Part shown: positions 3,320-60,585 of the stretch, piece after piece
Numbering within the stretch: position 1 is the stretch's first letter
Layout: each line of letters starts with the position of its first letter
NCBI GenBank assembly: GCA_017631315.1
Contig: JAGBTN010000007.1
Location: forward strand, 1-64,000
Direction: 5' to 3'
Source of the DNA: Bacteroidaceae bacterium
Lineage (GTDB): Bacteria > Bacteroidota > Bacteroidia > Bacteroidales > Bacteroidaceae
Length of the DNA stretch: 64,000 bases
The notes under the pieces: generated by a model
Databases searched by the model: none
What the model saw: only the letters and a program-made list of their open reading frames with translations
What the model was told of the DNA's origin: nothing
Made by a program: the position numbers and the translations under genes

Positions 3320-3700
3320 TTAGAATGGAGGTTCATTATTATTCTCGAATGTTAATGCATCTGTCTCTGGTAGAGGAGGAAATGGTTCCATGGGAACAGG
3401 AGATTGGGCATTTTGATACACCTTTTCTGTTTGGCGTTCAACTTTCCATGCCCGAATCTGATTATACCATTTTCCATTGTATTCACGAGCATCAACATCA
3501 AAGAACACAGTGAGTTCTTCTCCTATATGAATGTTCATGGAATGTATCTTTTCTTCCCCGAATACTTCAAACAATATTTTCTTGGGATATTGTTCTATTG
3601 TTTCCAACACATACTGACCACAACGCCAGTTATTACCAGTTCTCTGCGAAGTACCACTTTTTTCTTCAAGTACTGCCAAAATCCTACCTTTTATCTCCAT
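3320..3700 (-). CDS. DUF3127 OB-fold protein (SSB-like)
   Basis: 126 residues. Residues 1-95 match the Bacteroidetes DUF3127 pattern (MEIKGRILAVLEEKSGTSQR, then NWRCGQYVLET, then GKWYNQIRAWKVE), a domain with an oligonucleotide-binding fold related to single-stranded-DNA-binding proteins. A proline-rich linker leads to the tail NNNEPPF, which resembles the short C-terminal tip of bacterial SSB through which partners are recruited. It is the first gene of a two-gene unit with the TPR-protease and has its own promoter with an island-type operator. Single-stranded nucleic-acid binding is inferred from the family; it could serve the neighbouring helicases. Confidence 0.7.
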   Translation of the reverse strand: MEIKGRILAVLEEKSGTSQRTGNNWRCGQYVLETIEQYPKKILFEVFGEEKIHSMNIHIGEELTVFFDVDAREYNGKWYNQIRAWKVERQTEKVYQNAQSPVPMEPFPPLPETDALTFENNNEPPF

Positions 3701-3831
3701 ACTAAACGTCCTCCTTTGCCGGTTAAATGTGAAAACACTACAGATTTATGTTTTGAGAGACGATGAGATAAAACTTGCTCAATCCTTTCGGGTAATAGAG
3801 CAAGGAAAAGTCCGAATAGAATAAAATAAAA

Positions 3832-3912
3832 ATCGTTCATAGATGCTTTTGAATTATAATGGTGCAAAATTAATCACCCACTATGAACCCTTTGTTCGCA
3901 ACTATGAACGAT
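3832..3912. repeat. 11-bp inverted repeats flanking a promoter
   Basis: ATCGTTCATAG (3832-3842) and CTATGAACGAT (3902-3912) are perfect inverted copies 59 nt apart. They flank the DUF3127 promoter. Each contains the GAAC/GTTC half-site of the island operator, so they may be auxiliary regulator sites that allow looping. Confidence 0.6.
3864..3899 (-). promoter_or_regulatory. Promoter with WYL-type operator for DUF3127/TPR-protease
   Basis: On the minus strand: GCGAAC-AAAGG-GTTCAT (3899-3883), a 10-nt spacer (3882-3873), then the -7 box TAATTTTGC (3872-3864). Arrangement and spacing are the same as at the three plus-strand promoters of the island at 15225, 16380 and 18250. The inverted repeat covers the place of the -33 element. 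Confidence 0.75.
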
Positions 3913-3934
3913 TATAAAAAAGAGATTTTATTTG

Positions 3935-5830
3935 TTAGTTCTTTTTATATAATCTCGGTGGCACTTTATCTAAAGGTGAAGCCAAATTGAGAGTATTATA
4001 CATTAGATACAACTGATGCATAGTACGTGTCATAGCAACATAAAGTGCTTTTCTTGCTTCTTCAGTATTTGCTCCTTCAAACATTGGTATTATGACTATA
4101 TCAAACTGAAGTCCTTTGGCACTATGGTAAGTCATTACCTTCGGTAAGTTATTTGTAAAGTGAAGTTCTCCCTGAGCTCTTTTATCCTGAGCTTCCGTTT
4201 TAAACTTAAATTCATAATCAAAATCTTTTGATTTAAGTTTTTCGCATACTTCTATTACCTGTTGATTGCTTGGAAGCAGTACACCTATACTCATTTCTGG
4301 ATTGGAAGATGAAATTTCTATAATCTTATTTATTTGTTCATCAACAGTCTCGAAATGAATGAAATGAGGTAACTCTTTTTCTTTGTTCTGGTATACCTTT
4401 TCTTCATATCGCATAACATTTACACCTACATAGTCTTGTGTAATCTTAGCAACATTACGTGGAAGTCGGTAATTGTTATATAGTTTAAGAGGAACAAGCC
4501 CTGTCATATCGGCAATTTCTTCAATAGACAGAGTTTTTTTTCCGAAATGGTTATAGATAGACTGAGCTGAATCACCAAAAAAGAAGTAATGTTTAGCTGC
4601 TGCCTCTATGAACTCCTCAATTTCTTCACGTTCAAAATCTTGGATTTCATCAACAATAATATAGTCAGCAGAGGGCATGCCCAGATACTTCCAATAATGA
4701 TAATGATAAAACATGTAAGAGCTACAGCTTCTACCAGTTTGCATGAAACTATTAAGAGAACGTGTAAGAGATATAAGTATCACGGAGTTTCCCTTTTTTG
4801 CAATCTGTTCTGCTTTATGCATTGCAATAACAGACTTTCCACTTCCAGCACAGCCTGTAACCAACATTGATTGGTCAATTGTTATATCAATCAAATCAAG
4901 CTGATCGTCATCTAAAGACTCTTCATCTAAATCCCAGTCTTCAACAGCAAGACGCATTCGCTCCTTTAAATGTTTCTCTCTTTTTGGTTTGTAGACAATC
5001 GGAATTTCTGGAATCTCCTCTTCTTCAGTTGTAGGAGTTTCCATAATATGGGATTTGTTGAGCAACTCCCTTAACTCCTCTATTTCCCTTTGTTTTTCTG
5101 CTAAAAGAGTTTCAACTTCAGATGTCCTCACTTGTGATGCCAAGTGTTGTTCCTCCACTTCAGCCAACTGTTTCTTTGCAACCATCAAAGCTGCTTCCTT
5201 CTCATCAATAGTCTTGTTGGCAATATCTATTTGATTCTTCACCTGATTTAACTCTTTCTCTCTAACAGAATTAAAAGAGAAAGACTGCAATCCATTCAGA
5301 AACTCAACAGTTTCGGTTGAAATTATCGCATTTCCTTTTAAGAAGTCAAGAAAACCAGGAATACATGTAGCACAACCTCTTGCTTGTTCTTCTTCTTGCA
5401 TTGTGGAACCACCTGTATGACTTCCGAACTCGCTTGCAAAGCTATACCAACGACACAATTCAGAGCTATAACTTTCAATACTAAATTTTAATCTTTTCTT
5501 ATGTACATCTTCTCTTGCACTGTACACATCTGGATGATGCATAAAGTAAACACGAGGGAATATTGCAGTAAAGATACTACCTGTTGGTTTTCTTGAAGTA
5601 GGTCTTGTATCAATAAAAAAGATATTATCCCTGCCCTTTTGAATTGATTTACGACCTTCCATAATGTCGGCAGAAATTACATCATTTTTAATAATATCGT
5701 AAATAACAAGCTTGCACAACAGTTCTATAGCAGGTCGAATGTTTCTAAAGAAAGATGTATAATCCTTCTTGTTGAAGCAATCTACAGCTAAGTTGAAATC
5801 GTGCTTAAAACTATTCTTTATTGTTTCCAT
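3935..5830 (-). CDS. Superfamily 1 helicase (UvrD/DUF2075-like) with long N-terminal region
   Basis: 631 residues. Helicase motifs run in order: Walker A GCAGSGKS (about residue 330), Walker B IIVDEIQDF (about 392), motif III FFFGDSAQSIY, motif IV NYRLPRNVAKI, motif V YHSAKGLQFD (about 575), motif VI ALYVAMTRT. This is a complete SF1 set, so ATP-driven translocation on nucleic acid is expected. Residues 1-190 form an alpha-helical domain I cannot assign; residues about 195-265 are a Glu/Lys-rich coiled coil. It starts 11 nt after the giant helicase gene and is almost surely co-transcribed with it. It probably works in the same complex; its exact substrate is unknown. Confidence 0.8.
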   Translation of the reverse strand: METIKNSFKHDFNLAVDCFNKKDYTSFFRNIRPAIELLCKLVIYDIIKNDVISADIMEGRKSIQKGRDNIFFIDTRPTSRKPTGSIFTAIFPRVYFMHHPDVYSAREDVHKKRLKFSIESYSSELCRWYSFASEFGSHTGGSTMQEEEQARGCATCIPGFLDFLKGNAIISTETVEFLNGLQSFSFNSVREKELNQVKNQIDIANKTIDEKEAALMVAKKQLAEVEEQHLASQVRTSEVETLLAEKQREIEELRELLNKSHIMETPTTEEEEIPEIPIVYKPKREKHLKERMRLAVEDWDLDEESLDDDQLDLIDITIDQSMLVTGCAGSGKSVIAMHKAEQIAKKGNSVILISLTRSLNSFMQTGRSCSSYMFYHYHYWKYLGMPSADYIIVDEIQDFEREEIEEFIEAAAKHYFFFGDSAQSIYNHFGKKTLSIEEIADMTGLVPLKLYNNYRLPRNVAKITQDYVGVNVMRYEEKVYQNKEKELPHFIHFETVDEQINKIIEISSSNPEMSIGVLLPSNQQVIEVCEKLKSKDFDYEFKFKTEAQDKRAQGELHFTNNLPKVMTYHSAKGLQFDIVIIPMFEGANTEEARKALYVAMTRTMHQLYLMYNTLNLASPLDKVPPRLYKKN

Positions 5831-5841
5831 TCGTTGTCATT

Positions 5842-8800
5842 TTAGGCAGGAGTTCCAAAACCTGCAATTTGTACTACGTATATATAACCCAAATTACGTG
5901 CTTCTTGACACCAATCTTTGGCAAAATTGGTACCGTTAGCTTCGTCTGATTTTAAAGTATCCTCATAAGTCCATACACTAACATCACTTACAAAAAATCC
6001 TCTTAGCCTTCTGATGCCATACAAGTTAGCTTGATGGGCAATCTCACTTACACTTGAGAGTCTGGCTACAAAATCTTGTCCATGCTGAATAAAGTATCTA
6101 CCATAATTATCAGCCACGATAATAACCTCATCATCCTTCTTGACACGAGTAGCAATTATCTGATTTTCAGAAAAATTCCCTTCCCTTACATTTTGTGATA
6201 GATAATATTTATTCATCCCCGGTTCACGTTCAGCATAGAGAACATTTCCATCTTTTATAGGCAGATAAACACGATTGGCTTCTTCAATGGCGATTTCACG
6301 TAGACCTTTGTAAACATGCAGATATTTCTTCGCACGAGTATATGCAACAAACATCAAACGACGTTCTTCTTCAATATCAGCTTTATCATCTAATTGAAGT
6401 TCCTGACCTATGCTGTATGCACGATGTGGTTTCAATGGCAAAGATAAAGATGAAGATGTAATAAATACTGCATCGAACTCGAGACCTTTTACTTTATGCA
6501 TAGTTGTAAGAATGATGGTAAGAGCATCTTCTTGTAAAATGCGTTGCTCCTTGTAACGATCATATATTTTGTATACTTGACCGCCATCATCCCTTCCAGC
6601 TACTTCTAAAATATAGTTGGCCAATTCAGAATATGTATGAATAGATTCGTCAGAACGAATGGATTCCAGATAATTAAGCACAATTGTGTATGCCAAATCA
6701 ATGTTATAGGCATCCCAAGATGGGTTGTCTTCTATTTTCTTTTTCAAGAAATCCTTCATACTGCGAGCTGTTCTATCATCATCTAGCAACAATTCTGTAT
6801 CTGGATGTTGATTCAAGAAGTGTATCAAGTCATACACTTCTCTTTCTCGCCATAACTCACAAGTGCTTGCCCCTTGAATACGTATTCTAACATCATCAGG
6901 TACTTGTGATCTAATATCTGCATATCCTCGATAGACTTCATTGTTTGTTCTGAAGAACACTGCAATGTTATTTATTATTGCATGTTCATTCCCATTAGTT
7001 GCAGCTATTTCATTCTTATTCTTAATGTCGTTGATATATAATAACAAATCATCTGTCCACGATGCAGAACTATCACTGAATATGGTGTATGGCTCTTGCG
7101 GTTCATGTACCATTAAGGATGAAGCAGAGACTGGCAAATTACTATCAGCAGGAACAAACTTAGATGAGCTGTCGAGTATTTTCTGATATGAGCGATAGTT
7201 GGTAAACATCGTCAACTGATTCGGATGAAGCTCTTCATCTAATTTCTTATAATAAGCGTCTGGATTTAACCATGCAGCATATGTCGCAGGATTATTCATC
7301 GTCTGTGTATGACCATTATTATCTTTTGGTAATCTGTCAAATCCATAGATACTCTGATTCTTATCCCCGATCGTAAAGAACTTTACATCAGGATAAATCT
7401 TCCTAATTTCAAGTAATGAAAGTAGTCTATCACGCGTTATATCCTGGAACTCATCCACAAGAACGTATTCTATCTGAGGAAATAATCCTCTGAACTCTAA
7501 TATATTATTCTGCAAGAATTGTAGGAACAATTTCTCCCAAAGTTCTGTAGGAACATTGTCCAAACGACTGCCCATACATATCTTTGCAAGTGCATGGAAC
7601 GTATGAACATGTAGATGATGTCCAATACGGCTCATACCCAACTTCGTAAAGAGATTGTCGAGTCGGTTTTTAAGTTCGACAACAACTGCTCTATTATAAG
7701 CTAGTATTAAAAGATGGCTTGGCTCCACATGTTCCTTATAAATTAACTTAGCACATCTCATCGTCAACATATGAGTCTTACCAGAACCAGGACCTGCCAA
7801 TACATTTATTATTTCATTCTTCGGTTGCTCGTAAATTTTGATCTGTTCTTCATTTCTCAAATATCCCTTTTCTTTATCACCATAAAATTTCTTTTCCTCT
7901 TCTCGGAGAGCTTCTTCTGTTAGTTCAGACATTATATCAGAACCCTCAGGAGCATACTCACCTGCCAAAGCAAGATAATCATTGTAGTTACGGCACATAA
8001 AGTATCTACGAATGAAATCACCTTGTTGTTCTTTTTCAATCAACGAGAAAATGTGCATTGCAGTAAGACGAACTTTTTTGACTTTTTCTTGTTCGTCAAA
8101 GTCCTGTCTGAAATCGTACATTTCAGATTCCTTATCAGTTCCCTCATCAATGTAAGACTCTGTCTTGTCATTGGTAAGAATTTCAATACCCGAGCTGATC
8201 AATGGAGTATGTTCTATGTATGACAGCAGTCTAAGAACTGTCAACACCTTCTCAAAATACCCATACTTATTTCCATTGTCATGAAAATCGAGTTCTTGCA
8301 GTTTTTCAGCCCAATTAAAAGGACCAGATTGATTGCATACGAACTTAATCCAGTTAAAACAATCTTCCTCAAAGTATTCTAGAAACCCTTTCCATTGTTC
8401 ATTCTTGACCTTAACATGAAAATCGAATTTCTCTTCAACTTGCTTTACATGAAACTCTACTCCTGGTATATAGCGAAGAATAGAGAAGATTTGTGGACCT
8501 ACTCTAGTGATAATATTACGTTTGAATGTTTCTGCAATAGTAACAGCCCCTTTAGGTGGATTCTGAATTTCATTTTTCCAAGGCATGTATATTATTGTCT
8601 CAACCTTTTTTCTGCGCTTCTTTTCTTCCTTGATTGTTTCGTAATGAACATCATCAAGAAGATGTTTATATATTCTTTCCCTTCTATCTACATCATATAT
8701 ATGTGTAACGCCTATTTTACATTCATATAGCAGATTACGAACGCCCTCCATAGCAACATGAAGCGCAAACGTGTTATCATTATGATTAACCATGTATTTT

Positions 8801-11800
8801 GCTTCGCAGAATCTTCTTGTCTTTATTTCACAGCGCATTGTCTCATTGAATGAGAGCAATTTCTGCGAGTGACAATAAAGAATGGCATTCATTATCTGCT
8901 GGAACGACATCTTGTACTCCTTAAATGCTGTTCTCATATCTGTTATCGAAAACAGTGATGGACAATCAAGACTCTCTGCATTTCTTTTGAGATAGTCGTA
9001 GACAAATTGAAAACGTTGATCTCTGAAATTAACATCCACAGCTTCAGACATGATAGTCATATCATAGTATGCGGGACTCAAGTATTTCAACTTTATGAAA
9101 CCCATTGTTTCAAGCCAATGAAATGCTAAACGTGACGCTGTTGTATCTGTAAAATGTTCTGAATCATCATTTTTTGTCCACACATTATAAGGTACAACTA
9201 ATGGCTTAATCATAGTATCTTCTATTGTCCTGAACTTTTTTATGAAGGCCACAATCTTATCCTTACAGTCTGTAAGATCAGACCAACTCATCTGACTACG
9301 AACAAGCAGATCTTTCAGTTTATGGAAGTCTTCGTCTGATGTAATACATACAGCTGGTAGTTCATTATGAGAAAGATAGAATTCAGGTCGTTCTGAAGGA
9401 TTTTCCTGATAGTCTCGTCCTGCTCGTCCAACTTCCTGCAAGTAATCTTCAAGAACTGAAGGTGGAGTATAATGTACCAAGTAGTGAACATTCGGAATGT
9501 CCATCCCCATACCAAATGCCTTAGTCGCACACAAGATGTATATATGTTCTGATTCTGCAACTGGTACATCTTCCCCATTCTCTTTACGAGTTTTCTTGAA
9601 TCTACAATATTTCTCGTTACGTTCTTCTGCATCCAGCCCAGCATGGAAATAATCTATATGGTCAAAGCATCTGTGCAAAATGGAATTTTCTGGAGCCTTT
9701 TCGCATAGTGCATTCAGAGCTTCTGCTGTCTCTGAACATTGATTATGTGTTCTACAGAAAATGAGCATACAACTTTCTTTAAAATCAATCTCATTCTCTG
9801 TTATATATTGTGCTATCGCCTTAACACGTGCATCATCATTATGACCCTGTTTTCGCTTGCCGGAATTAGTGACAGCAAAAGAAATACCAATATGGTTTCG
9901 TATTGGATTATATTCTTCTGCTGATTGACCTAATCTCGTAATATCAGGCATAAATTTCTTAAAGTCTGCCTCTACCTGAGTTGTCACTGTTGCAGAGAAC
10001 ATGGCTATCATTATGTCAAAAGTCTGTTGCAACTCTACACAACGGACTATCGCATTTCTGTAATCAGGCCTAAAATCCTGCCCCCATTGTGATACACAAT
10101 GTGCTTCGTCAAAAACAACGTATTCTAAACCATTATCCAAACGAAGACGTTGGTACAAAACATCCATGAAAGATCTAACTCTGAATCGTTCAGGGGTTAT
10201 ATACAAAAGTGCTATCTCACCAGATTGGATACGTCTGTATATCTGCTGAGTTTCAGCAAGCATTCTGTCACCACTAAGATAATCAACGTTACTTACGAAC
10301 CCTTTCGACTGCAATTCCTCAACTTGATCCTGCATCAGAGCACGTAGAGGGGTTACTACCAATGTCAGTTTGTGGGATGTAATAGCCCTACATAAAGCAG
10401 GACCTTGGAATAGTACGGATTTACCGCCACCTGTTGGTATAGAAATCACACAGTTACCAGATTTGGATAGCATGTGGTCAACTATTTCTTCCTGTCCATT
10501 TCTCCATCCACTATACCCCCAGTTAGAAAGTATCATCTGTTTCATCTGGTCAATTCCTAACTGGTCAGTTTCAGCCACATTATCCTTAAAGAACAAAGAA
10601 GCCCCTTCTAAAATATTACGGAACTCATCATCATTCTTCCACAGTTGGAACTCTACACTCTTTGATTTACATGCCTTTGCTAATCCAGAGTAATCTTCAA
10701 AGTGTGGATCGGTGATATAGAACATTGTTTCAGGGCTATTTGCCATTGCTAAAGAGCAGTAATGCTCAAATATAGGCCATGCAGCTAGAACACATTGTCT
10801 TGCAGTAGTCCGTTTATGATGCTCATCAGCATCAGAATCAGAAGAATCTTCGTAATCACCATCAAAAGGTAATGTATCCCACATAACCATATATCGGTCA
10901 ATATCCATATTGTCCCAGATATAACAAAATGGTTTGTCTGTTCTATAACTACCTAGTCCTGTCACAAACTGATCCTTAGAAATGATAATCATTCCATCTG
11001 GATGATTGCCTATATATTCAAGTTTTCTGAAACCATTACCTTCTTCAGGTATAAAATACCCCTTGGAAGTAGCATATCTATTTAATTCGACATATTCATC
11101 AAGAGTGTTTATAACATATACAATCGGAAGACTTCTGTTTTGCTCATGAATCTTATCAATAAGAGCAAATTGGTATGCCCAGTAGTTGCTTCTTCTGGTA
11201 GTCACAGGATTTACACGCAATACGGAAGCATCGTACGTATCTCGCAATTGTGTTCGAACTTGTATTATATTCTGTGTATCAGACTTTTCTCCTTTTATTT
11301 CCCAATATATTGGATTATGCTTTATACCAGTAAAATGAGACAAGAAATTATCTCTGTATTTCTGATACTGATAGTTCTGATATATAGCAAAAGTGCCATT
11401 ATGCTGTCTTTCACACCAAACATTAGCGGTCAAAGGATGTTTCTTTATACCTAGTTTTGTTTGATCATCATCAGAAATAACTGCAATATTGGTTGCCGCC
11501 ATTTGCATAGGCAGTTTGCTACCGACTTCTAGCAAATCCGAGAATTTCCATTCTCGTTGTTCTTTACATTTATGTACTCTGTCCTGTCTTTCCGACCCGA
11601 TAAAGTATATGTGTTTATAGTCTTTTGCGTAAATTTCTTTAGATTGGAATGAATCTATATCGATACAATCTATCCGACTATTAGACATCTCCACAAATCG
11701 TGAAAGTATGCTGTTAGTGAAGGTAATCTTATCACTACCTTCATTTTCAATTCTTAAATACTGTGCTAGATTTGCAACGATTGGTGTGGCTGAAACCTTG

Positions 11801-13935
11801 CAGAATCTGTGTAAAACAGTATTCCACAAATGTGATGACATTGGATATTCGTTAAGTTGATCTTCATTTATAGCCATGTATTCAATGTTATCCCCAACGC
11901 AAGGGAATCGAAGAGGTATTATTTGAGCAATTCGAGGCCATAAATCCTTAGGAGCGATAACCAATACGTCATTATCGTCTGTTTCAGCAACTATGTTAGA
12001 AATTTGAGTACGAACCTTATCAGACAGGGGTCTCAGTTCTTGAAAAAAGTGTCTGTCTTCATTTGCTGACATTCTGAAATACTCAGCAAACGCCGGTAAT
12101 TGCAAAGTACTAAGAATCGTATTAATCTCAGACGGGAGGAAGTCCTTTAGCTCTAAGCATACACCTTTGTCCAAAGACAATCTATATAACTGGTTCCAAA
12201 ACAACTCGTTTTCCAATTCGGTGTCATCTGTAGCGTTATGTTCCGTTCTGAGAGAATATGCATATCGACATGGATTGAGTAGAATCTCAATCTCTAATGT
12301 ATCCCAGACAAATGAATCTGTTGAAATCCCCTTTTTTCCTAAAATAGGCAAATCCCATTGCTTAATGTTGTGTCCAACAATAATTGGAGTTTTTGTTACG
12401 GCTCTTCCAAGACTTGACAATTGGGCCTCTGATGTATAAGAACGTACATTTCCTTCTTTCAGAAATGCAAATTCTGTAATATTCTCTCCATCAGATTCAA
12501 TGTCGAACACTACGTATGGGACTTCAGCTTTGCATTTATTCCATTTTTCACCAATATAACTTTTAAACAGTTCAGTACCTTTGAAGTAATTATACACCAC
12601 ATCTATACCAAGATTATCTTCAAGGGTGATAACAAATTGATACTGAGCGTCATCATCCATTAGCCTCACTCCCTTAGAAATTGCTTCTGCACGCAAAGAA
12701 GACATAAACTCATGGTATAATTCTTCATCAAGAGATTCTGATGCTATATTCAGGAAAGATTTAATTTTGAGAGGTATCTGGTTAGACATCCACTTCATTG
12801 AATTGTCTATATCGCTAATGCTGTTTATACAGCTCACGTTATTAGACAATAGAAATGTTTCCATCAGCAATAGGTCATCGCTAATAGAACATTCTGCGAT
12901 GAAGTCTGAAAGTAGCTGTTCTTGTTCTGAGTTAAGTTTAAGTTGTTGCCATGTTAAGGAGAACGAAATAAAATTAGATTTTATCTGATTATTCCATTCG
13001 CTAATTACACAAGGATGCATTATCCACTTGATATCTGAAGTTCTTTCTGTGAAGTAATAACGCAATGAAGCATTTGGATTGAACTTCTTGTGACTAAAAT
13101 TCCGCTCAATTTCATCCACAGACATTAATTCTAGGAACTTTCTGCATTGAGTTCTATTATCAATGAAATTATGATTAACAAAGTTCCAAAGTTCCCGTTG
13201 ATAATCCTCAATTGAAACTTTTGAGCTATATCTTACAAATTCAGGATAGTTATAACTCTTTAACGCTAACAGTAGTTGTTTCTTTAGCAAATCAAAGGCA
13301 TAAGATATGTCAGCTTGAGAGTCAAGAATCTCGTCTGCTTGTTCTGTGAGACCTACAATTCGCACATCTTTTTTTATGTTGGCATCCAGGATGTTTACTA
13401 CATCACTTTCGTTATTCCTTATCTGGTTAAGCAAGTCAATTAACACAATTTTCTTTCCTTCATCAGTATTCAGAAAAAAATCGTGAATATCTTTTTGGAA
13501 ATCTTTTGAAACGTAGTTTCCTCTAATTGTACCTATTACATGAGAGTATTGGTCAACGTAAGCTTTTCCTAATTCATAATCCTCAACAGTGCAAGCAAAA
13601 GGCTTTATATTAACAGCTTTCTCCTTGTTGTCACCACGTTTACAGATACTGAACGTTATTAAAAGATTTGTCGATATTTCAGAATCTCCTTGCCAGTCTG
13701 ATTTATGAAAAAAGATTTCCTTGGCTCTTGTCACAGCACCTGTATCAAAACCTTGACCGTTTGTTACAATAAATGCATATCCCTCATTTTCATTGAAATA
13801 ATGAACATAACCAATATATCTTGTGTTATCAACATTATCAAACACTGGAAAATCGGGCAAGTTCTCCAAATTCAACTTGTCCAACGGGATATTACCCTTA
13901 ATATATTTCGATTTTACATTGATGATCTCTTCCAT
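5842..13935 (-). CDS. Giant CSD / DEDDh exonuclease / RecQ helicase / UvrD helicase fusion
   Basis: About 2,697 residues from the ATG at 13935 (a TTG lies 12 nt upstream). Domains in order: cold-shock-like OB fold near 38-115 (GYVHYFNENEGYAFI, IFFHKSDW); an unassigned helical region; a DEDDh 3'-5' exonuclease near 475-600 (VVFDIESDG, VGHNIKQWDLPIL, HNATDDTELE); an unassigned region near 600-1130; a RecQ-type SF2 helicase with Walker A IPTGGGKS (about 1170), FDEAHCVSQWG (about 1280) and QEVGRAGRD (about 1505); then a UvrD-type SF1 helicase with LAGPGSGKT (about 2050), VDEFQD (about 2160) and MHKVKGLEFD (about 2485). All key residues look intact. It is second in line after the S1 gene (26-nt gap). 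It plausibly senses, unwinds and degrades foreign nucleic acid, which is inference. Confidence 0.85.
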   Translation of the reverse strand: MEEIINVKSKYIKGNIPLDKLNLENLPDFPVFDNVDNTRYIGYVHYFNENEGYAFIVTNGQGFDTGAVTRAKEIFFHKSDWQGDSEISTNLLITFSICKRGDNKEKAVNIKPFACTVEDYELGKAYVDQYSHVIGTIRGNYVSKDFQKDIHDFFLNTDEGKKIVLIDLLNQIRNNESDVVNILDANIKKDVRIVGLTEQADEILDSQADISYAFDLLKKQLLLALKSYNYPEFVRYSSKVSIEDYQRELWNFVNHNFIDNRTQCRKFLELMSVDEIERNFSHKKFNPNASLRYYFTERTSDIKWIMHPCVISEWNNQIKSNFISFSLTWQQLKLNSEQEQLLSDFIAECSISDDLLLMETFLLSNNVSCINSISDIDNSMKWMSNQIPLKIKSFLNIASESLDEELYHEFMSSLRAEAISKGVRLMDDDAQYQFVITLEDNLGIDVVYNYFKGTELFKSYIGEKWNKCKAEVPYVVFDIESDGENITEFAFLKEGNVRSYTSEAQLSSLGRAVTKTPIIVGHNIKQWDLPILGKKGISTDSFVWDTLEIEILLNPCRYAYSLRTEHNATDDTELENELFWNQLYRLSLDKGVCLELKDFLPSEINTILSTLQLPAFAEYFRMSANEDRHFFQELRPLSDKVRTQISNIVAETDDNDVLVIAPKDLWPRIAQIIPLRFPCVGDNIEYMAINEDQLNEYPMSSHLWNTVLHRFCKVSATPIVANLAQYLRIENEGSDKITFTNSILSRFVEMSNSRIDCIDIDSFQSKEIYAKDYKHIYFIGSERQDRVHKCKEQREWKFSDLLEVGSKLPMQMAATNIAVISDDDQTKLGIKKHPLTANVWCERQHNGTFAIYQNYQYQKYRDNFLSHFTGIKHNPIYWEIKGEKSDTQNIIQVRTQLRDTYDASVLRVNPVTTRRSNYWAYQFALIDKIHEQNRSLPIVYVINTLDEYVELNRYATSKGYFIPEEGNGFRKLEYIGNHPDGMIIISKDQFVTGLGSYRTDKPFCYIWDNMDIDRYMVMWDTLPFDGDYEDSSDSDADEHHKRTTARQCVLAAWPIFEHYCSLAMANSPETMFYITDPHFEDYSGLAKACKSKSVEFQLWKNDDEFRNILEGASLFFKDNVAETDQLGIDQMKQMILSNWGYSGWRNGQEEIVDHMLSKSGNCVISIPTGGGKSVLFQGPALCRAITSHKLTLVVTPLRALMQDQVEELQSKGFVSNVDYLSGDRMLAETQQIYRRIQSGEIALLYITPERFRVRSFMDVLYQRLRLDNGLEYVVFDEAHCVSQWGQDFRPDYRNAIVRCVELQQTFDIMIAMFSATVTTQVEADFKKFMPDITRLGQSAEEYNPIRNHIGISFAVTNSGKRKQGHNDDARVKAIAQYITENEIDFKESCMLIFCRTHNQCSETAEALNALCEKAPENSILHRCFDHIDYFHAGLDAEERNEKYCRFKKTRKENGEDVPVAESEHIYILCATKAFGMGMDIPNVHYLVHYTPPSVLEDYLQEVGRAGRDYQENPSERPEFYLSHNELPAVCITSDEDFHKLKDLLVRSQMSWSDLTDCKDKIVAFIKKFRTIEDTMIKPLVVPYNVWTKNDDSEHFTDTTASRLAFHWLETMGFIKLKYLSPAYYDMTIMSEAVDVNFRDQRFQFVYDYLKRNAESLDCPSLFSITDMRTAFKEYKMSFQQIMNAILYCHSQKLLSFNETMRCEIKTRRFCEAKYMVNHNDNTFALHVAMEGVRNLLYECKIGVTHIYDVDRRERIYKHLLDDVHYETIKEEKKRRKKVETIIYMPWKNEIQNPPKGAVTIAETFKRNIITRVGPQIFSILRYIPGVEFHVKQVEEKFDFHVKVKNEQWKGFLEYFEEDCFNWIKFVCNQSGPFNWAEKLQELDFHDNGNKYGYFEKVLTVLRLLSYIEHTPLISSGIEILTNDKTESYIDEGTDKESEMYDFRQDFDEQEKVKKVRLTAMHIFSLIEKEQQGDFIRRYFMCRNYNDYLALAGEYAPEGSDIMSELTEEALREEEKKFYGDKEKGYLRNEEQIKIYEQPKNEIINVLAGPGSGKTHMLTMRCAKLIYKEHVEPSHLLILAYNRAVVVELKNRLDNLFTKLGMSRIGHHLHVHTFHALAKICMGSRLDNVPTELWEKLFLQFLQNNILEFRGLFPQIEYVLVDEFQDITRDRLLSLLEIRKIYPDVKFFTIGDKNQSIYGFDRLPKDNNGHTQTMNNPATYAAWLNPDAYYKKLDEELHPNQLTMFTNYRSYQKILDSSSKFVPADSNLPVSASSLMVHEPQEPYTIFSDSSASWTDDLLLYINDIKNKNEIAATNGNEHAIINNIAVFFRTNNEVYRGYADIRSQVPDDVRIRIQGASTCELWREREVYDLIHFLNQHPDTELLLDDDRTARSMKDFLKKKIEDNPSWDAYNIDLAYTIVLNYLESIRSDESIHTYSELANYILEVAGRDDGGQVYKIYDRYKEQRILQEDALTIILTTMHKVKGLEFDAVFITSSSLSLPLKPHRAYSIGQELQLDDKADIEEERRLMFVAYTRAKKYLHVYKGLREIAIEEANRVYLPIKDGNVLYAEREPGMNKYYLSQNVREGNFSENQIIATRVKKDDEVIIVADNYGRYFIQHGQDFVARLSSVSEIAHQANLYGIRRLRGFFVSDVSVWTYEDTLKSDEANGTNFAKDWCQEARNLGYIYVVQIAGFGTPA

Positions 13936-13961
13936 ATTGATAGACAAGTTTTGTATACTTA

Positions 13962-14726
13962 TTACTCCTTAGATGGAGTTTTCATTGACATCTTGCGGTT
14001 TTCTGCATCAATCATACTGATTTCAAGTGTCAAGCTATCCCCAACATTATATAAATCCTTCATCTTTTTTCCTTTGCCCACATTCATTTCAGAACGATGA
14101 TACAAAGCATCAAGACCAGGCTCTAGTTCAACAAACACTCCATAATCCTGTATCACCTTAATTTTGCGAGTAAGGATTTGGCCAACAACATAATTCTGGG
14201 TAACATTATCCCATGGATTAATAAGAAATGGAAGTATGGACAAACTTATTCTTCTTTTATTGTTATCGAGTTCTATTATTTCTGCATCTAAAGTCTGCCC
14301 TAAAGAAACAAAATCATTGGGATCATTAACTAAACCAAATGATAATTGTTTTTTGTGAATAAGACCTCTCAGACCTGGTTCAAGTTCGACAAATGCACCG
14401 ATGTCTGTAATGTTTACAACAGAAACCTTCAATTGATCACCTATCTTATAACGCAATTGTAGATTATCCCAAGGGTTGTTCTCCAAACGTTTTATACTTA
14501 ACATCACCTGCCCATTCTCAATTTTTACAACAACAGCTTGAATTTCATCGTTCATCTTGACATTGCAACGAAGTTTATCGCTCCACGTCATTTCGGAAGT
14601 AGGAAGGACACATTTAATAGTATCGACTATTACTATCGAATATAATTTGGTAATGTATGTTACTTTTCCTTGTACAATGGTACCTACATGTAGAGATTGT
14701 ACATTATCATTTAGAATATTGTCCAT
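13962..14726 (-). CDS. Triple S1-domain RNA-binding protein
   Basis: 254 residues from the ATG at 14726; a TTG 15 nt upstream is in frame but less likely. Three consecutive S1 OB-fold domains occupy the whole protein: residues about 14-75 (VGTIVQGKVTYITKLYSIVI, divergent), 85-160 (IGDQLKVSVVNITDIGAFVE, then LRGLIHKKQL) and 168-245 (VGQILTRKIKVIQDYGVFVE). Repeats 2 and 3 are the best conserved and resemble those of ribosomal protein S1, but the protein is much shorter than S1 (which has six repeats). It is encoded between the XRE gene and the giant helicase in one minus-strand run, so it probably gives that machine RNA or single-strand binding. Confidence 0.8.
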   Translation of the reverse strand: MDNILNDNVQSLHVGTIVQGKVTYITKLYSIVIVDTIKCVLPTSEMTWSDKLRCNVKMNDEIQAVVVKIENGQVMLSIKRLENNPWDNLQLRYKIGDQLKVSVVNITDIGAFVELEPGLRGLIHKKQLSFGLVNDPNDFVSLGQTLDAEIIELDNNKRRISLSILPFLINPWDNVTQNYVVGQILTRKIKVIQDYGVFVELEPGLDALYHRSEMNVGKGKKMKDLYNVGDSLTLEISMIDAENRKMSMKTPSKE

Positions 14727-14753
14727 AACAAGATAAGGCAATCTTTAGGATTA

Positions 14754-14966
14754 TCATTTTGCTGTACTGATTAACAATTCACGAATATCAACATTCAAGA
14801 GTTCAGCAATCTTTAACAGCGTTTGCAAATCAGGCTGTGTAGTATTAGTACACCACTTGCTTACAGTAACAGGATCTTTCCCAAGTTGCTCTGCCAACCA
14901 CTTGTTTGTTTGATTCGCATCAGCAAGCACAGCCTTCAATCGATTAATATTTTGGGCATTGTCCAT
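14754..14966 (-). CDS. XRE-family helix-turn-helix regulator
   Basis: 70 residues (MDNAQNINRLKAVLADANQT start), a minimal Cro/C1-type HTH domain: WLAEQLGKDPVTVSKWC is the turn and recognition helix, followed by QPDLQTLLKIAELLNVD. The reading frame stays open upstream to a TTG at 15041, but a -7 box TAAATTTGC at 14997-14989 (minus strand) points to the ATG at 14966. It is the first gene of the S1 / giant helicase / SF1 helicase run and is divergent from the WYL gene. It likely represses its own operon, as small XRE proteins at the head of defence operons often do. Confidence 0.8.
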   Translation of the reverse strand: MDNAQNINRLKAVLADANQTNKWLAEQLGKDPVTVSKWCTNTTQPDLQTLLKIAELLNVDIRELLISTAK

Positions 14967-14988
14967 ATTTAAATAATTAACGTTGAAT

Positions 14989-14997
14989 GCAAATTTA
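14989..14997 (-). promoter_or_regulatory. Promoter -7 box of the XRE-helicase operon
   Basis: TAAATTTGC on the minus strand, 23 nt upstream of the XRE start codon, matches the Bacteroidetes TAnnTTTGC consensus. No RCGAAC-N5-GTTCGT operator is found upstream of it, unlike the neighbouring promoters. Confidence 0.6.
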
Positions 14998-15224
14998 CTA
15001 ATTTTTAATGAAATAAAAAAAACTACTGCTACATTCTGCAAGAACTGATAAATATTTGTTGATTTTTCAAATAAAAAGGGTAAAAAGTAATAGAATTAAT
15101 TAATCATCTGTTGGCATTTCATGCGACACGAACTTCACAACATTTTAAATTCCTGACGGAAAGTCTAATGATTTAATGAAGATTCATTAAAAAATAAATT
15201 ATTATAGGCACTTTTACGTATCCT

Positions 15225-15259
15225 ACGAACATAGAATTCGTATCTTTTCATTAATTTTG
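15225..15259 (+). promoter_or_regulatory. Promoter and operator of the WYL regulator gene
   Basis: Inverted repeat ACGAAC-ATAGA-ATTCGT (15225-15241), a 10-nt spacer, then the -7 box TAATTTTG (15252-15259); ATG at 15286. This is one of four promoters in the island with identical layout and suggests autoregulation. Confidence 0.75.
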
Positions 15260-15285
15260 TGACAGAAATTAAAATTCAGTAAATT

Positions 15286-16368
15286 ATGCCAGCTAACAAG
15301 AACGCAATGACAAGATATAAGATACTTGATGAACTATTAAGCAGCAGGTATCATAACTACTCTCTTGATGATTTAACAGAAAAGGTAAGCAACAGGTTGG
15401 CAGATATGTACCCTGATACAAATGGTGTTGTCAGACGTACAATAGAAAAGGACATATATTATCTTGAATACGAAGGTCCATTTATGGTTGAGATTGAAAG
15501 ATATTCTGTCCCTAGTTATAGCAAGGAAAAGCAAAAGTCATACATGAAGCAGTGCTTACGATATGCCCAACCTTCATTTTCAATTTTCAAAAAAGAAATG
15601 ACAGAAGATGAGGAGTATCTTTTATCAGAAGCCTTATCATTACTAGGACAATTCGATGGTTTACCTAATCTTGATGCTCTGGAAGGTCTGAGGTTAGGTT
15701 TGGGGGTTAAACGCAACGAACGACATATTATTTCATTTACCAAAAATCCTCTAGAAAATTCAAATCTTCTGGGTGAACTCTTTACCGCAGCATCGCAAAA
15801 ACAGGTAATAGAGATACATTATCATAAGTTCTCCGCTCCAGACCAAGAACTTGTAGTTAATCTTCATCCATACCTATTAAAAGAATACAATAGAAGATGG
15901 TATCTATTTGCGGCTGCAGAAGATGATGAAAAAATGCTTTGCTTCGGTTTAGACAGAATAGATAAGGTCGTTCCACTTCCATCACACAAATATGTAGAAT
16001 ACAATGGAGATCTTAACGAACGCTTTGAGGATATTGTGGGTGTAACACTATTTGAAAACAGTCCTGTTTATCCAATCATTTTCTGGGTAAGCGATTTTTC
16101 AAAGGATTATGTGTTGACAAAACCAATACATGATTCACAGAAAAGAGTAAACGAGAAGAAAGCGTTAAGTTTAAGAGAACAATATCCATCTCTTAATAAT
16201 GGAATATTTCTTCAGATAGATTGCCGAGACAATTATGAATTAATCAGAGAGCTTTCATCTTTTGGCAAAGATTTAATAGTGTTATCACCAAGCGTTATAC
16301 AGGATAAAGTATGGAATCGCATTAATTCCATGAATGAAGAATATATAAAAATAAGAAGCTCAAAGTAA
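15286..16368 (+). CDS. WYL-domain transcriptional regulator
   Basis: 360 residues. The N-terminal third is a winged-helix DNA-binding domain (MTRYKILDELLSS, then VVRRTIEKDIYYLE). The middle holds the WYL ligand-sensing domain with the signature RRWYLFAA near residue 205, followed by LCFGLDRIDKVVPL; the C-terminal part is a WCX-like extension. WYL proteins of the CapW/BrxR kind repress phage-defence operons and are thought to respond to nucleic-acid ligands. The gene is divergent from the XRE-helicase operon, and its own promoter and three others nearby share an inverted-repeat operator, so it is the natural candidate for binding them. The family is clear; the targets are inferred. Confidence 0.85.
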   Translation: MPANKNAMTRYKILDELLSSRYHNYSLDDLTEKVSNRLADMYPDTNGVVRRTIEKDIYYLEYEGPFMVEIERYSVPSYSKEKQKSYMKQCLRYAQPSFSIFKKEMTEDEEYLLSEALSLLGQFDGLPNLDALEGLRLGLGVKRNERHIISFTKNPLENSNLLGELFTAASQKQVIEIHYHKFSAPDQELVVNLHPYLLKEYNRRWYLFAAAEDDEKMLCFGLDRIDKVVPLPSHKYVEYNGDLNERFEDIVGVTLFENSPVYPIIFWVSDFSKDYVLTKPIHDSQKRVNEKKALSLREQYPSLNNGIFLQIDCRDNYELIRELSSFGKDLIVLSPSVIQDKVWNRINSMNEEYIKIRSSK

Positions 16369-16379
16369 AAAAAAAGACT

Positions 16380-16415
16380 ACGAACATTGAGTTCGAATAT
16401 GCCAGGTAATTTTGC
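16380..16415 (+). promoter_or_regulatory. Promoter and operator of the HD/unknown/WG unit
   Basis: ACGAAC-ATTGA-GTTCGA (16380-16396), a 10-nt spacer, then TAATTTTGC (16407-16415). It begins 11 nt after the WYL stop codon, so the next gene has its own regulated start of transcription. Confidence 0.75.
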
Positions 16416-16431
16416 ATAAAATTCAAAGAAA

Positions 16432-17034
16432 ATGGATTACAAGAAAGAATTTATAGAACATCTAAAGACTACCAATCGTCAAGGAATCGACGATTTGGTA
16501 ACAGAACTTGAAGACATGGGGTTTTTCAAGGCACCGGCAAGTACAAAGTTTCATTTGAATGAGGAAGAAGGTTTGGTAAAACATTCCTTAAATGTATGCA
16601 AAGCTGCTTTAAACATAAGGAAGTCGATGATAGAACTAGATGACACATTACTGGAAGAACTACCAAAAGACAGTGTCATAATAGCTTCTCTACTACATGA
16701 TACTTGCAAAGCAGATATTTACAAGCCTACGATGAAGAAAGAAAAAAATAGATTTGGAACATGGTGTGAGGTTCCTGGTTATGATGTGGATTATTCCAAC
16801 TTTCCTCTCGGTCATGGAGAAAAGTCTGTCATTGTATTACTCCGTTCAGGTTTTGAACTTACTGATGATGAAATAATGGCAATACGCTGGCACATGAACG
16901 CATGGGATCTCCCATTTCAATCTTATGACATTAAAAGCAATTTCAATAAGGCAAAAGAAATATGCCCATTACTCTCATTGGTTCAAGCAGCTGATTGTTT
17001 AGCTTCAAACCTTTTAGAAAGGAAAGTTGAATAA
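16432..17034 (+). CDS. HD-domain phosphohydrolase
   Basis: 200 residues. Metal-binding HD signature residues are visible in order: KHSLNVCKAA (first His), LLHDTCKADIY (HD pair), later GHGEKSV and IRWHMNAWD, and AADCLASN (distal Asp). HD proteins cleave phosphate esters, often nucleotides or cyclic nucleotides. The protein is short, with the HD fold filling most of it. It leads a three-gene unit (HD, unknown, WG repeat) behind an island-type operator. A second, different HD gene lies at 23349. Nucleotide hydrolysis is likely; the substrate cannot be told from sequence. Confidence 0.8.
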   Translation: MDYKKEFIEHLKTTNRQGIDDLVTELEDMGFFKAPASTKFHLNEEEGLVKHSLNVCKAALNIRKSMIELDDTLLEELPKDSVIIASLLHDTCKADIYKPTMKKEKNRFGTWCEVPGYDVDYSNFPLGHGEKSVIVLLRSGFELTDDEIMAIRWHMNAWDLPFQSYDIKSNFNKAKEICPLLSLVQAADCLASNLLERKVE

Positions 17035-17091
17035 TACATAGTTTTACAACAAATAGTTATCTTCTGAATATAATAAATAGCTATCACAATT

Positions 17092-17658
17092 ATGTTAAAC
17101 AGAATCCTTAAAAGATTTAGGACGCCACTTTCTATCGAATATATTAATAAGCAATTACGGTCAAAAGGAATTGCGACTAATCAGAGTGGTGAGAATAACT
17201 TATCTTTCAAATTGTACGATATGAACTGGGATCTTTATTATGAAAAAGATCGCTTTAGTCTACGTAATTCATTCAATATCAGTAGTGAAACAGACAAAGA
17301 ATGCTTATTGAAGGCTGCAAATAAACTCAATAACAATAGATGGATTGCTAAAGCATTCATTGATGAATATATTGCAGAGAATGATAGTCTAAAGAAAAAA
17401 GAAACTATATCATCTATCATTTTTTCATTTGAGAGTTTTTGCTACTCAGAGATGGATTTTATGAACATGTATGAATTTGCTATATATGCAATGACAGATG
17501 CCATAGAATTTCACCGTAAATGCTACGCTGAGTTAATGAAGGAAAAGGAATCAACATCCTCAAATAACCCCATAGGCTTCAATGCTAGAAGGAATAACAA
17601 TGAAGATAGCACTGTGGTAGAAAATAAAAAAACAAGAACAAGAATAGGGTTTATATAA
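17092..17658 (+). CDS. Unknown protein, small alpha/beta fold
   Basis: 188 residues; I do not recognise a named family. The first 150 residues alternate short strands and helices (LSIEYINKQLRSKGI, FKLYDMNWDLYYEKDRFSL, a helical stretch KECLLKAANKLNNNRWIAKAF, then SIIFSFESFCYSEMDF). This order resembles YbjN or secretion-chaperone-like folds, but that is only an impression. The last 40 residues are polar, low-complexity and basic (KTRTRIGFI end). It stands 57 nt after the HD gene and 3 nt before the WG-repeat gene, so the three are probably translated from one transcript. Confidence 0.55.
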   Translation: MLNRILKRFRTPLSIEYINKQLRSKGIATNQSGENNLSFKLYDMNWDLYYEKDRFSLRNSFNISSETDKECLLKAANKLNNNRWIAKAFIDEYIAENDSLKKKETISSIIFSFESFCYSEMDFMNMYEFAIYAMTDAIEFHRKCYAELMKEKESTSSNNPIGFNARRNNNEDSTVVENKKTRTRIGFI

Positions 17659-17661
17659 AAA

Positions 17662-18201
17662 ATGGTATACAGAAACGAACACATATATGGAAACAGAATT
17701 GTAGCGCAACGCTCTGATTTCAAGTGGGGTGTTTGTGACTTGTCAGGTACTATTATTGTACCATTCGGCAAATACGATTGGATTGATGGGTTTGAGAAAG
17801 GGTTAGCAAGAGTAAAACTAGGTCATGAATCAAATGCCATTGCAAATAATAGCAACAAATGGGGTATAATCAATATGAACGGCGAGGAAGTACTTCCTGT
17901 AGTTTATGACAACATATGGAATTTTCTTGGAAAGAAGATGTTTTCTACACGCGTTGAGAAAGACGGTGAAGTTAAACACATCAATTTTCATGACCTAAAC
18001 CCAGAGTTGCCTAAAGTAGCCATAAATAGAGAAGATCACGAACCGTCAGATACACCGGACCTTGATAATGAAGAGGAAAATTATGGTACTACTTTTAGTA
18101 AGTATTCCGGAACATATGCCCAAGACATTGCAGGCTTCAGTGATGATATTATAGATGATGTTTTTGAAGGTGATCCTGAAGCTTACTGGAACATCGATTA
18201 G
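17662..18201 (+). CDS. WG-repeat protein, cytoplasmic
   Basis: 179 residues. Residues about 8-95 contain two WG-type beta repeats (FKWGVCDLSGTIIVPFGKYD and NKWGIINMNGEEVLPVVYDN); the C-terminal 70 residues are acidic and unstructured-looking (PDLDNEEENYG). There is no signal peptide or membrane segment. WG repeats form beta-rich binding modules of largely unknown function. It is the last gene of the HD/unknown/WG unit, directly upstream of the retron promoter. A membrane-anchored relative is encoded at 21188, so the two may bind the same partner. Confidence 0.75.
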   Translation: MVYRNEHIYGNRIVAQRSDFKWGVCDLSGTIIVPFGKYDWIDGFEKGLARVKLGHESNAIANNSNKWGIINMNGEEVLPVVYDNIWNFLGKKMFSTRVEKDGEVKHINFHDLNPELPKVAINREDHEPSDTPDLDNEEENYGTTFSKYSGTYAQDIAGFSDDIIDDVFEGDPEAYWNID

Positions 18202-18249
18202 ATATAAGAACAACAATATTACATTAAAAAAATACGTTTTTTAAAAATC

Positions 18250-18284
18250 ACGAACAATCAGTTCGTACATATGACGTAACTTTG
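18250..18284 (+). promoter_or_regulatory. Promoter and operator of the retron
   Basis: The most symmetrical operator of the four: ACGAAC-AATCA-GTTCGT (18250-18266), a 10-nt spacer, then the -7 box TAACTTTG (18277-18284). Transcription should start near 18291, about 14 nt before the retron RNA a1 arm. Confidence 0.8.
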
Positions 18285-18304
18285 AATCAGAATTAAGAAA
18301 CAAA

Positions 18305-18564
18305 GCGGTCTTTGACATTTCTTGAAAACTGGAATTACATTTTGAACCTTCGTCCAGCGTGGCATAAGCCCTGCCTTATCAGGTAGATTCGCAGGATGTC
18401 TTCTTGTTCTAAGGAACCTGAAGATAAACAATGTTATCACGTTAACGTTGATACTTGACATACTATGTATGTTTTTATTGTTTTTATGTTATATATTATT
18501 TATCATATTTAGTGTATTTACATAAAGAAAAGACATTCCAAATTTCAAGTCTGTCAGAGACCGC
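18305..18564 (+). ncRNA. Retron msr-msd RNA
   Basis: The ends are complementary over about 30 bases: the 5' arm (18305-18335, beginning GCGGTCTTTGACA) pairs with the 3' arm (18534-18564, ending TGTCAGAGACCGC), with one G-U pair and a few mismatches. This is the a1/a2 layout of retrons, and the RT start codon follows 13 nt later. Inside are a hairpin CTTCTTGTTC/GAACCTGAAG (18400-18423), the palindrome CGTTAACG (18440-18447) and an AT-rich 3' half (18450-18530) that would be the msd template. The branching G and exact msr/msd border cannot be fixed by eye. Confidence 0.8.
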
Positions 18565-18577
18565 CTATTATATAATA

Positions 18578-20966: not shown

Positions 20967-21187
20967 CTATGAACTTATTTTTACTTATAGAGGAATCTAA
21001 AGGTTAGCATAACACTATTGTGTAAAATCATTAGTGTCCACTATTATTTGAATATGTTCTTTAAAATGATGATGCATTTCGGTAACAGCAAATCAATGTA
21101 TTAAATGCCGAAGTATATCATCAGAATGACTATTATTAGAGTGTTGGATTACAGCAGTAACTTTTAAAACAATTATATTTAAACTAT

Positions 21188-22087: not shown

Positions 22088-22093
22088 AGACTT

Positions 22094-23329: not shown

Positions 23330-23348
23330 TCCTATAGAATGAGATAAT

Positions 23349-60474: not shown

Positions 60475-60485
60475 AATGTCGAACA

Positions 60486-60568
60486 TCAAAAGGGTGCCCC
60501 ATTGGGGCTGAGATTATACCTTCGAACCTGATGCAGCCAATACTGCCGTAGGGATTGAGTCGCATAAA
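60486..60568 (+). promoter_or_regulatory. TPP riboswitch (THI element)
   Basis: Conserved core visible in order: AGGGTGCC, GGGGCTGAGATT (the CUGAGA core), ACCTTCGAACCTGATGCAG, CCAATACTGCCGTAGGGA. Senses thiamine pyrophosphate and controls the thi genes downstream. Confidence 0.93.
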
Positions 60569-60585
60569 CTTAACAAGCAATAAGG

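What the first reader, a model, noticed from the sequence alone, without database searches (positions are those of the whole stretch)
3864..18284. One operator shared by four promoters ties the island into a single WYL regulon
Seen: RCGAAC-N5-GTTCGT-type inverted repeats at 15225-15241, 16380-16396, 18250-18266 (plus strand) and 3899-3883 (minus strand). Each is followed by exactly 10 nt and then a TAATTTTG or TAACTTTG -7 box. They stand in front of the WYL gene itself, the HD/unknown/WG unit, the retron, and the DUF3127/TPR-protease unit. Known: WYL repressors of the CapW/BrxR type bind inverted repeats at defence promoters. Inference: one regulator switches on all these units together, so they form one system.
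Basis: partly seen in the sequence, partly recalled or inferred. Interest (0 to 1): 0.92.

Follow-up and report, generated by a model that had tools for sequence, protein, structure and literature searches.

The report
WYL-controlled promoters shared by defence genes
Four gene groups in this bacterial defence island, one of them a retron, start from promoters that carry the same palindromic switch site, and that site recurs at the promoters of related regulator genes in other bacteria, so one regulator protein very probably controls several antiviral systems together.

Summary
It is far above chance: in the 2.68 Mb genome, repeat plus box with up to 2 mismatches occurs seven times, these four and three in a second island with a WYL paralog. 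In 32 loci, 73 sites were found against 0 for a reversed matrix, before WYL, at or just after its stop codon, and before retrons, WG, AAA/OLD and HAD-DprA genes. Repeat arms change together and largely follow the WYL clade, so the WYL protein very probably reads the site. Held-out loci mostly agree. Two corrections. The regulon is not the whole island: the 11-kb Xre-helicase operon between the outer sites has no operator, nor has the WG-FtsZ group. And the geometry does not fit a CapW-type repressor: the operator replaces the -33 box (TTG in 0 of 73 versus 32 of 71 controls) at a fixed distance from the -7 box, as described for the WYL activator DriD. I favour an activator, about 60:30 over a repressor. 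Nothing was tested at the bench.

The parts
15225..15259 (+). operator (15225-15241) + 10 nt + -7 box; promoter of the WYL gene
15286..16368 (+). WYL-domain regulator, 360 aa (WYL 161-228, WCX-like 301-348, presumed N-terminal wHTH)
   Evidence: Pfam; 28 homologs aligned; wHTH not confirmed
16380..16414 (+). operator + 10 nt + -7 box, 12 nt after the WYL gene end; promoter of the HD/unknown/WG unit
16432..17034 (+). HD-domain protein, 200 aa
   Evidence: PF01966
17092..17658 (+). protein of 188 aa without a family match
17662..18201 (+). WG-repeat protein, 179 aa
   Evidence: PF14903
18250..18284 (+). operator + 10 nt + -7 box; promoter of the retron
18305..18564 (+). predicted retron msr-msd RNA; a1 18305-18317 pairs with a2 18552-18564
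   Evidence: fold z-score -8.07 for 18285-18577; positions read; alignment of 8 leaders
18578..20137 (+). retron-type reverse transcriptase, 519 aa
   Evidence: PF00078, PADLOC retron models
20139..20966 (+). RT-linked protein of 275 aa, with a homolog behind this RT in 6 of the relatives' loci; possible retron effector or partner
   Evidence: cluster c5
3865..3899 (-). operator (3899-3883) + 10 nt + -7 box; promoter of the leftward unit
3691..3840 (-). predicted 49-aa ORF, first in the leftward unit, overlaps the DUF3127 start
3320..3700 (-). DUF3127 protein, 126 aa
   Evidence: PF11325
1251..3299 (-). TPR protein with C-terminal retropepsin-like aspartyl protease domain, 682 aa
   Evidence: PF07719, PF13975
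3935..15041 (-). NOT in the regulon by sequence: Xre-type HTH, S1 protein, 2701-aa DpdF-like/UvrD helicase, UvrD-like helicase; no operator in front

Best explanation
A dimeric WYL-domain regulator (15286-16368) binds a 17-bp palindrome that occupies the place of the -33 box in front of four transcription units of its island: its own gene, the HD/unknown/WG unit, the retron (RNA + RT + 275-aa protein), and the 49-aa/DUF3127/TPR-protease unit. Because the operator replaces the -33 box at a fixed distance from the -7 box, with a core oriented to the promoter, I infer that the protein works as an activator: on its signal (single-stranded DNA or another nucleic-acid sign of infection or damage, by analogy with DriD and PafBC) it docks RNA polymerase on promoters that are weak alone, switching the units and itself on together. 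Shown here: sites, geometry, near-restriction to WYL islands, co-variation of the arms and its relation to WYL clade. Inferred: dimer, binding, positive sign, signal. The units are probably separate defence systems sharing one switch. The paralog of the second island (C18) has the same operator type and may cross-talk.
For: Own genome: the 7 sites with up to 2 mismatches lie in the two islands with full-length WYL genes; the third WYL match (C17, residues 165-353 only) has none. Relatives: 73 sites at 18 bits or more in 655,224 bases versus 0 for the reversed matrix (18 of the 73 are the training sites); of 72 sites in loci with a called WYL ORF, 71 are on the WYL strand; 17 of 30 WYL ORFs have an operator within 110 nt upstream, 16 of 30 have one within 18 nt of their end and 3 more 213-333 nt beyond it, and 13 of 13 retron RTs have one within 695 nt upstream. 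Arms co-vary: 4/14 pair A-T in 52, C-G in 14, other in 3 of 69 distinct sites; covariation score 0.304 versus 0.141 shuffled, 0 of 500; C-G arms occur only in one WYL clade. Held-out loci: viral contig L112 has 3 sites; G111, G021 and G292 have sites beside WYL or a retron RT. Geometry: of 97 repeat-only hits, 59 have TAnnTTTG at exactly 10 nt, none at any other spacing 0-25, 38 no exact box; TTG at -33 spacing in 0 of 73 versus 32 of 71, p 1.5e-12; core AxAG on the promoter strand in 63 of 73, on the opposite strand in 0. DriD sites overlap the -35, same distance from the -10, poor -35 (PMC12340889, passages).
Against: No binding, transcript or signal data. The 0 of 73 follows from where the operator sits, so it shows replacement of the -33 box, not activation; the -33 box could not be identified in another phylum member (PMC7366714, passage). 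Up to 18 of the 59 boxed repeat hits are training sites picked with that spacing. Pfam barely sees an HTH (HTH_11 in 3 of 28 at E<=1) and no structure could be predicted (server busy). G387 has a 50%-identical WYL homolog (one stop inside) without a site near it. In 198 genomes, 46 have a match at E<=0.1 where about 20 are expected by chance, and some strong hits (G067; G082:C22; G186:C33) have no WYL homolog within their 3-kb loci. Two of ten plasmid homolog loci (L115, L121) have no site at E<=0.5. Three loci of the C-G clade have A-T or mixed arms.
Confidence: 0.6

Rival explanations
1. Same regulon, opposite sign: the WYL protein is a CapW/BrxR-like repressor that covers the promoter until infection releases it.
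For: Known defence WYL regulators BrxR and CapW repress and bind inverted repeats (PMC9122601, PMC9122588, passages); an operator over the -33 region would block polymerase.
Against: CapW sites overlap the -10 and the BrxR repeat lies downstream of a predicted -10; here the position is fixed at 10 nt before the -7 box and the -33 box is absent. The three best solved sequences are one chain named PafBC and two that I recall to be PafBC parts, ahead of CapW and BrxR, though only over WYL/WCX.
Confidence: 0.3
2. The 35-bp element is the promoter of an alternative sigma factor, not a WYL operator.
For: Fixed spacing and an oriented core are also what a -35/-10 pair looks like.
Against: Palindromic arms that co-vary and largely track the WYL clade; TAnnTTTG is the known primary-sigma box (PMC7366714, passage); sites in the own genome lie only in WYL islands.
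Confidence: 0.04
3. The sites are relics of repeat copying or shared ancestry of the promoters, not a working regulon.
For: Some sites are identical over 35 bp: the two L023 sites at 6935 and 9914, the two L032 sites at 11437 and 11916 and one in L028.
Against: Among most sites the 10-nt spacer varies while arms, core, spacing and box are kept; unrelated genes follow.
Confidence: 0.04

Closest known systems
DriD (Caulobacter WYL activator)
   Same: WYL-domain protein, pseudo-palindromic site overlapping the -35, same distance from the -10 at its promoters, poor -35, small regulon with a site at its own gene (PMC12340889, a preprint, passages)
   Different: DriD controls DNA-damage genes; here the targets look like defence units; ssDNA sensing and contacts with polymerase untested; no chain named DriD was among the sequence matches
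PafBC (mycobacterial WYL activator, sigma adaptation)
   Same: WYL activator inserted between promoter DNA and the sigma domain that usually contacts the -35 (PMC11804915, passages); a PafBC-named chain is among the best sequence matches, over the WYL part
   Different: PafBC is a heterodimer with a -26 motif; here a single protein and a palindrome
BrxR
   Same: WYL regulator of defence islands binding inverted repeats; two boxes in one island (PMC9122601, passages)
   Different: BrxR represses; 11-bp arms downstream of a predicted -10; here up to five operators of 6-nt arms at the -33 position, fixed spacing. Its text names retrons only in the introduction and references
CapW
   Same: WYL regulator of one defence system (CBASS) binding a palindrome (PMC9122588, passages)
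   Different: repressor; palindrome over the -10; one promoter region

Membership tests
WYL-domain transcription regulators | WYL domain | tested here: met
   PF13280 in 28 of 28 homologs, window E 1.1e-11
WYL-domain transcription regulators | C-terminal WCX | tested here: met
   PF25583 in 27 of 28 at E<=1; the window protein scores 21.6 against a cut-off of 23.9, so just under it
WYL-domain transcription regulators | N-terminal winged HTH | tested here: inconclusive
   HTH_11 in 3 of 28 members at E<=1; structure server busy
CapW/BrxR repressors | operator over or downstream of the -10 | tested here: not met
   operator ends 10 nt before the -7 box, over the -33 position
CapW/BrxR repressors | represses its operon | not testable with these tools
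   needs reporter or transcript data
DriD/PafBC-type WYL activators | site overlaps the -35/-33 at a fixed distance from the -10/-7 | tested here: met
   59 of 97 repeat-only hits have an exact box and all 59 have it at 10 nt; up to 18 of them are training sites
DriD/PafBC-type WYL activators | poor or absent -35/-33 element | tested here: met
   TTG 0 of 73 versus 32 of 71 controls
DriD/PafBC-type WYL activators | activation by ssDNA in the WYL domain | not testable with these tools
   biochemistry needed
Retron (third unit) | retron RT preceded by a structured RNA with a1/a2 repeats | tested here: met
   PADLOC retron models; z -8.07 and 13-bp a1/a2 closing stem
Retron (third unit) | msDNA made in the cell | not testable with these tools
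   needs DNA isolation

The most novel reading that the evidence does not exclude
A phylum-wide family of Bacteroidota WYL activators reads a portable 35-bp promoter cassette (palindrome in place of the -33 box + 10 nt + -7 box). Any defence module that acquires the cassette joins a shared alarm regulon, so retrons and other systems are switched on together by one infection or DNA-damage signal, and two islands in one genome may share it. Distant relatives on plasmids keep the geometry with changed arms (TGCA or CGCA).
Probability: 0.33. Interest if true: 0.85.

Novelty: new variant of a known kind. Interest (0 to 1): 0.7.

Why it matters
Retrons and most defence systems are studied one at a time, and how they are switched on is largely open. 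A recognisable promoter cassette makes the regulon readable from sequence: it predicts which genes belong together, points to uncharacterised units behind the operator (HD/unknown/WG, DUF3127/TPR-protease, HAD-unknown-DprA) as defence candidates, and makes the sign and signal of a defence WYL regulator directly testable.

Tried and rejected
Repressor by default: set aside as the leading reading because of geometry. Alternative sigma factor: rejected on arm co-variation. One system: rejected because the helicase operon and the FtsZ group lack operators and unit content changes between islands. Structure prediction of the WYL protein: asked twelve times, server full each time; no model, so no fold comparison. 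HTH residues that follow the arm type: looked for by eye, none clear, not pursued. Literature: nine searches of the held library; among the rows they listed (long results were capped) no title or abstract start told of a WYL regulon of retrons or of this operator; the library lacks most subscription papers and bioRxiv. Chance estimate for WYL neighbours among background hits: 6 of 27 loci of about 2-3 kb (L068-L094) hold a WYL homolog, 0.06 expected if a genome has two WYL genes in 3.5 Mb (my assumption; p 4e-11).

Full report
Observation. The four repeats, the 10-nt gaps and the TAATTTTG/TAACTTTG boxes are exactly as described. With 6-nt arms only the 18250 site is a perfect repeat; the 15225 and 16380 sites each lack one pair and the 3899 site lacks two. 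The leftward unit starts with a predicted 49-aa ORF (3840-3691) that overlaps the start of DUF3127.

Rarity in the genome. The repeat-plus-box pattern with up to 2 mismatches occurs seven times in 2.68 Mb: the four, and three on contig C18 (16090, 21337, 22423, minus). With up to 3 mismatches there are 13 hits against 4 for the backwards control. The C18 sites belong to a second island with a 52%-identical WYL paralog: one before the paralog, one before an AAA_15/OLD-like ATPase, one before a 182-aa ORF. The covariance model R1 returns the same seven and no other at E<=0.1; these seven were in its training set and the tool scored 150 of 1318 first-look candidates, so one search carries the weight.

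Relatives. A scan for the WYL protein gave 30 loci in named records; two of them (L045, L046) hold only the first codons of the gene. A matrix built from 18 WYL promoters was run on the window, C18 1-40,000 and the 30 loci, 655,224 bases: 73 sites at 18 bits or more against 0 for the reversed matrix; at 12 bits 77 against 2. The 18 training sites are among the 73. Of the 32 loci (window, C18 island, 30 relatives), 31 have at least one site and 24 have two or more; L045 has none. Of the 72 sites in loci with a called WYL ORF, 71 lie on the WYL strand; the exception is the window's own leftward site. The loci extend at most 10 kb from WYL, so closeness to WYL is partly built in; strand, count and control are not.

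What follows the sites (first called gene on the strand within 800 nt). Of 73: WYL 17, retron RT 11, AAA/OLD-like ATPase 6, WG 6, WD40-like 3, HAD 3, HATPase 2, PIF1-like 1, c15 1, other small clusters 19, none 4. Leaders before the named protein genes are 18-108 nt, mostly under 40; before RTs 238-405 nt. All 13 RTs of the cluster have an operator within 695 nt upstream, 11 within 405. In 16 of 30 loci an operator starts within 18 nt of the WYL end, in 3 more 213-333 nt beyond it.

Retron. The 293 nt between the promoter box and the RT fold at -87.6 kcal/mol, z -8.07, with a 13-bp closing stem 18305-18317/18552-18564. Seven leaders of relatives were aligned with it; by eye most share the a1 and a2 ends, L037 and L055 least. 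The RT matches retron models, closest to type XI/XII in PADLOC, the match covering only the RT part of those models.

Who reads the site. In the alignment of 73 sites paired arm positions co-vary: 87.0% of cells paired versus 76.4% shuffled; score 0.304 versus 0.141, 0 of 500 shuffles; slid versions at most 0.088. Two measures did not exceed the shuffles (pairs with a change on both sides, further pair types). Position 4/14 is A-T in 52 and C-G in 14 of 69 distinct sites. C-G arms occur only in loci of one WYL clade (10 rows, SH-aLRT 98), and the majority label needs 2 changes on the tree; within that clade three loci (L030, L034, L037) are A-T or mixed, and outside it L039 has one A/G site. 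The truncated L046 row has an extreme branch and should be ignored.

Held-out tests. R1 was built without these. L112 (viral contig, WYL 74% identical): three sites, at 5945, 7074 and 8002. G111: sites on both sides of WYL; G021: at the WYL end and before an RT; G292: before an RT, 7.8 kb from WYL; G387: none near its WYL, whose frame holds a stop. Across 198 genomes of the order (stricter filters), 46 have a match at E<=0.1 with about 20 expected, the E-values being rough. The tool gave loci for the best hits; of the 27 outside the close-WYL genomes, 6 contain a WYL homolog of 27-34% identity within 2-3 kb. Further pairs are seen in G082, G186 and G193, and a second one in G081. Of ten plasmid loci taken from 19 hits, one per genus, sites at E<=0.05 lie within 230 nt before the WYL start in L116, L117, L118 and L122, and 0.3 and 3.2 kb after WYL in L120; weaker ones at the WYL end in L113 (E 0.08, aligned by the model with an insertion) and L114 (E 0.16); L119 has one 2.4 kb away (E 0.09); L115 and L121 have none at E<=0.5.

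Mode. Repeat-only scan: 97 hits of 12 bits or more; 59 have TAnnTTTG and all 59 at 10 nt; 38 have no exact box, and 27 of these are not among the 73 sites. Most of the 27 are weak, but L034 12286 (19.1 bits) has only a degenerate box, about 7 nt away, and L031 12791 (15.0 bits) a degraded one at 10 nt; they are possible exceptions or decayed sites. Up to 18 of the 59 are training sites that were picked with this spacing. Control promoters (exact TAnnTTTG 6-70 nt before ORFs of 120 aa or more, not operators): TTG 18-22 nt upstream in 32 of 71; operator promoters 0 of 73 (p 1.5e-12). This must be so if the repeat sits there, so it demonstrates replacement, not activation. The core AxAG is on the promoter strand in 63 of 73 and on the other in 0. 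A repressor needs neither a fixed phase nor an oriented core; an activator docking polymerase does (inference). The DriD preprint describes sites overlapping the -35 at one distance from the -10 with poor -35 matches (PMC12340889, passages); PafBC inserts between promoter and sigma domain 4 (PMC11804915, passages). CapW sites overlap the -10 (PMC9122588, passages) and the BrxR repeat lies below a predicted -10 (PMC9122601, passages). Sequence search places the protein nearest to three chains of which one is named PafBC and two 'Transcriptional regulator-like protein' (that these are PafBC parts is recall), then CapW and BrxR, over WYL/WCX only.

Limits of the regulon. The minus-strand operon 3935-15041 (Xre HTH, S1, 2701-aa DpdF-like/UvrD protein, UvrD-like helicase) lies between the leftward site and the WYL promoter and has no site before or within it. 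The group 21188-23915 (WG, FtsZ-like, unknown) has neither an operator nor a TAnnTTTG box in the 20960-21190 gap, but could be read through from the retron. Shared control is thus likely for four units; a single system is not shown.

Verdict. Real, far from chance, and very probably a WYL regulon (about 0.88 for WYL reading the site). The sign is open: activator about 0.6, repressor about 0.3. New variant of a known kind.

Noticed in passing
G000 contig C18 16090-22457 (locus L015): Second defence-like island in the same genome with a WYL paralog (52% identity) and three copies of the operator, before the paralog, an AAA_15/OLD-like ATPase unit and a 182-aa ORF; possible cross-talk with the window island.
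   Followed up: partly
window 22094-23329: A second FtsZ (above the TIGR00065 cut-off) between a WG-repeat gene and an unknown gene in the island; the other copy, 55% identical over 295 aa, lies on contig C3 beside what looks like FtsA (named by reading the sequence, not by a search).
   Followed up: partly
window 5842-13947: One 2701-aa minus-strand ORF with both a DpdF-like DEAD helicase and a UvrD-like helicase, after an Xre HTH and an S1 protein gene; no WYL operator.
   Followed up: no
L045 2745-2852 and L046 10001-10078: Two different loci keep only about the first 26 codons of the WYL gene and, by eye, break at nearly the same codon (RYHNYS/T); L046 keeps the operator promoter in front and runs into a protein that looks TPR-like by eye.
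   Followed up: no
L122 6001-8981 (Segatella copri plasmid NZ_CP085933.1): A distant WYL gene annotated in two pieces separated by an IS607 transposase and a TnpB gene, with the operator still in front.
   Followed up: no
L113-L120: Distant WYL homologs on Bacteroidota plasmids stand beside restriction-modification, type III-B CRISPR, ThiF/multiubiquitin and PDDEXK nuclease genes; some have TGCA-type arms in the same 17+10+8 geometry.
   Followed up: partly
window 60480-60571: TPP riboswitch above its Rfam threshold.
   Followed up: no
L027, L036, L022 (c16-c18) and L052: A recurring three-gene unit, HAD phosphatase, unknown and DprA-like protein, directly behind the operator at the WYL end (L027, L036, L052) or after a retron unit (L022); a candidate defence module.
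   Followed up: no
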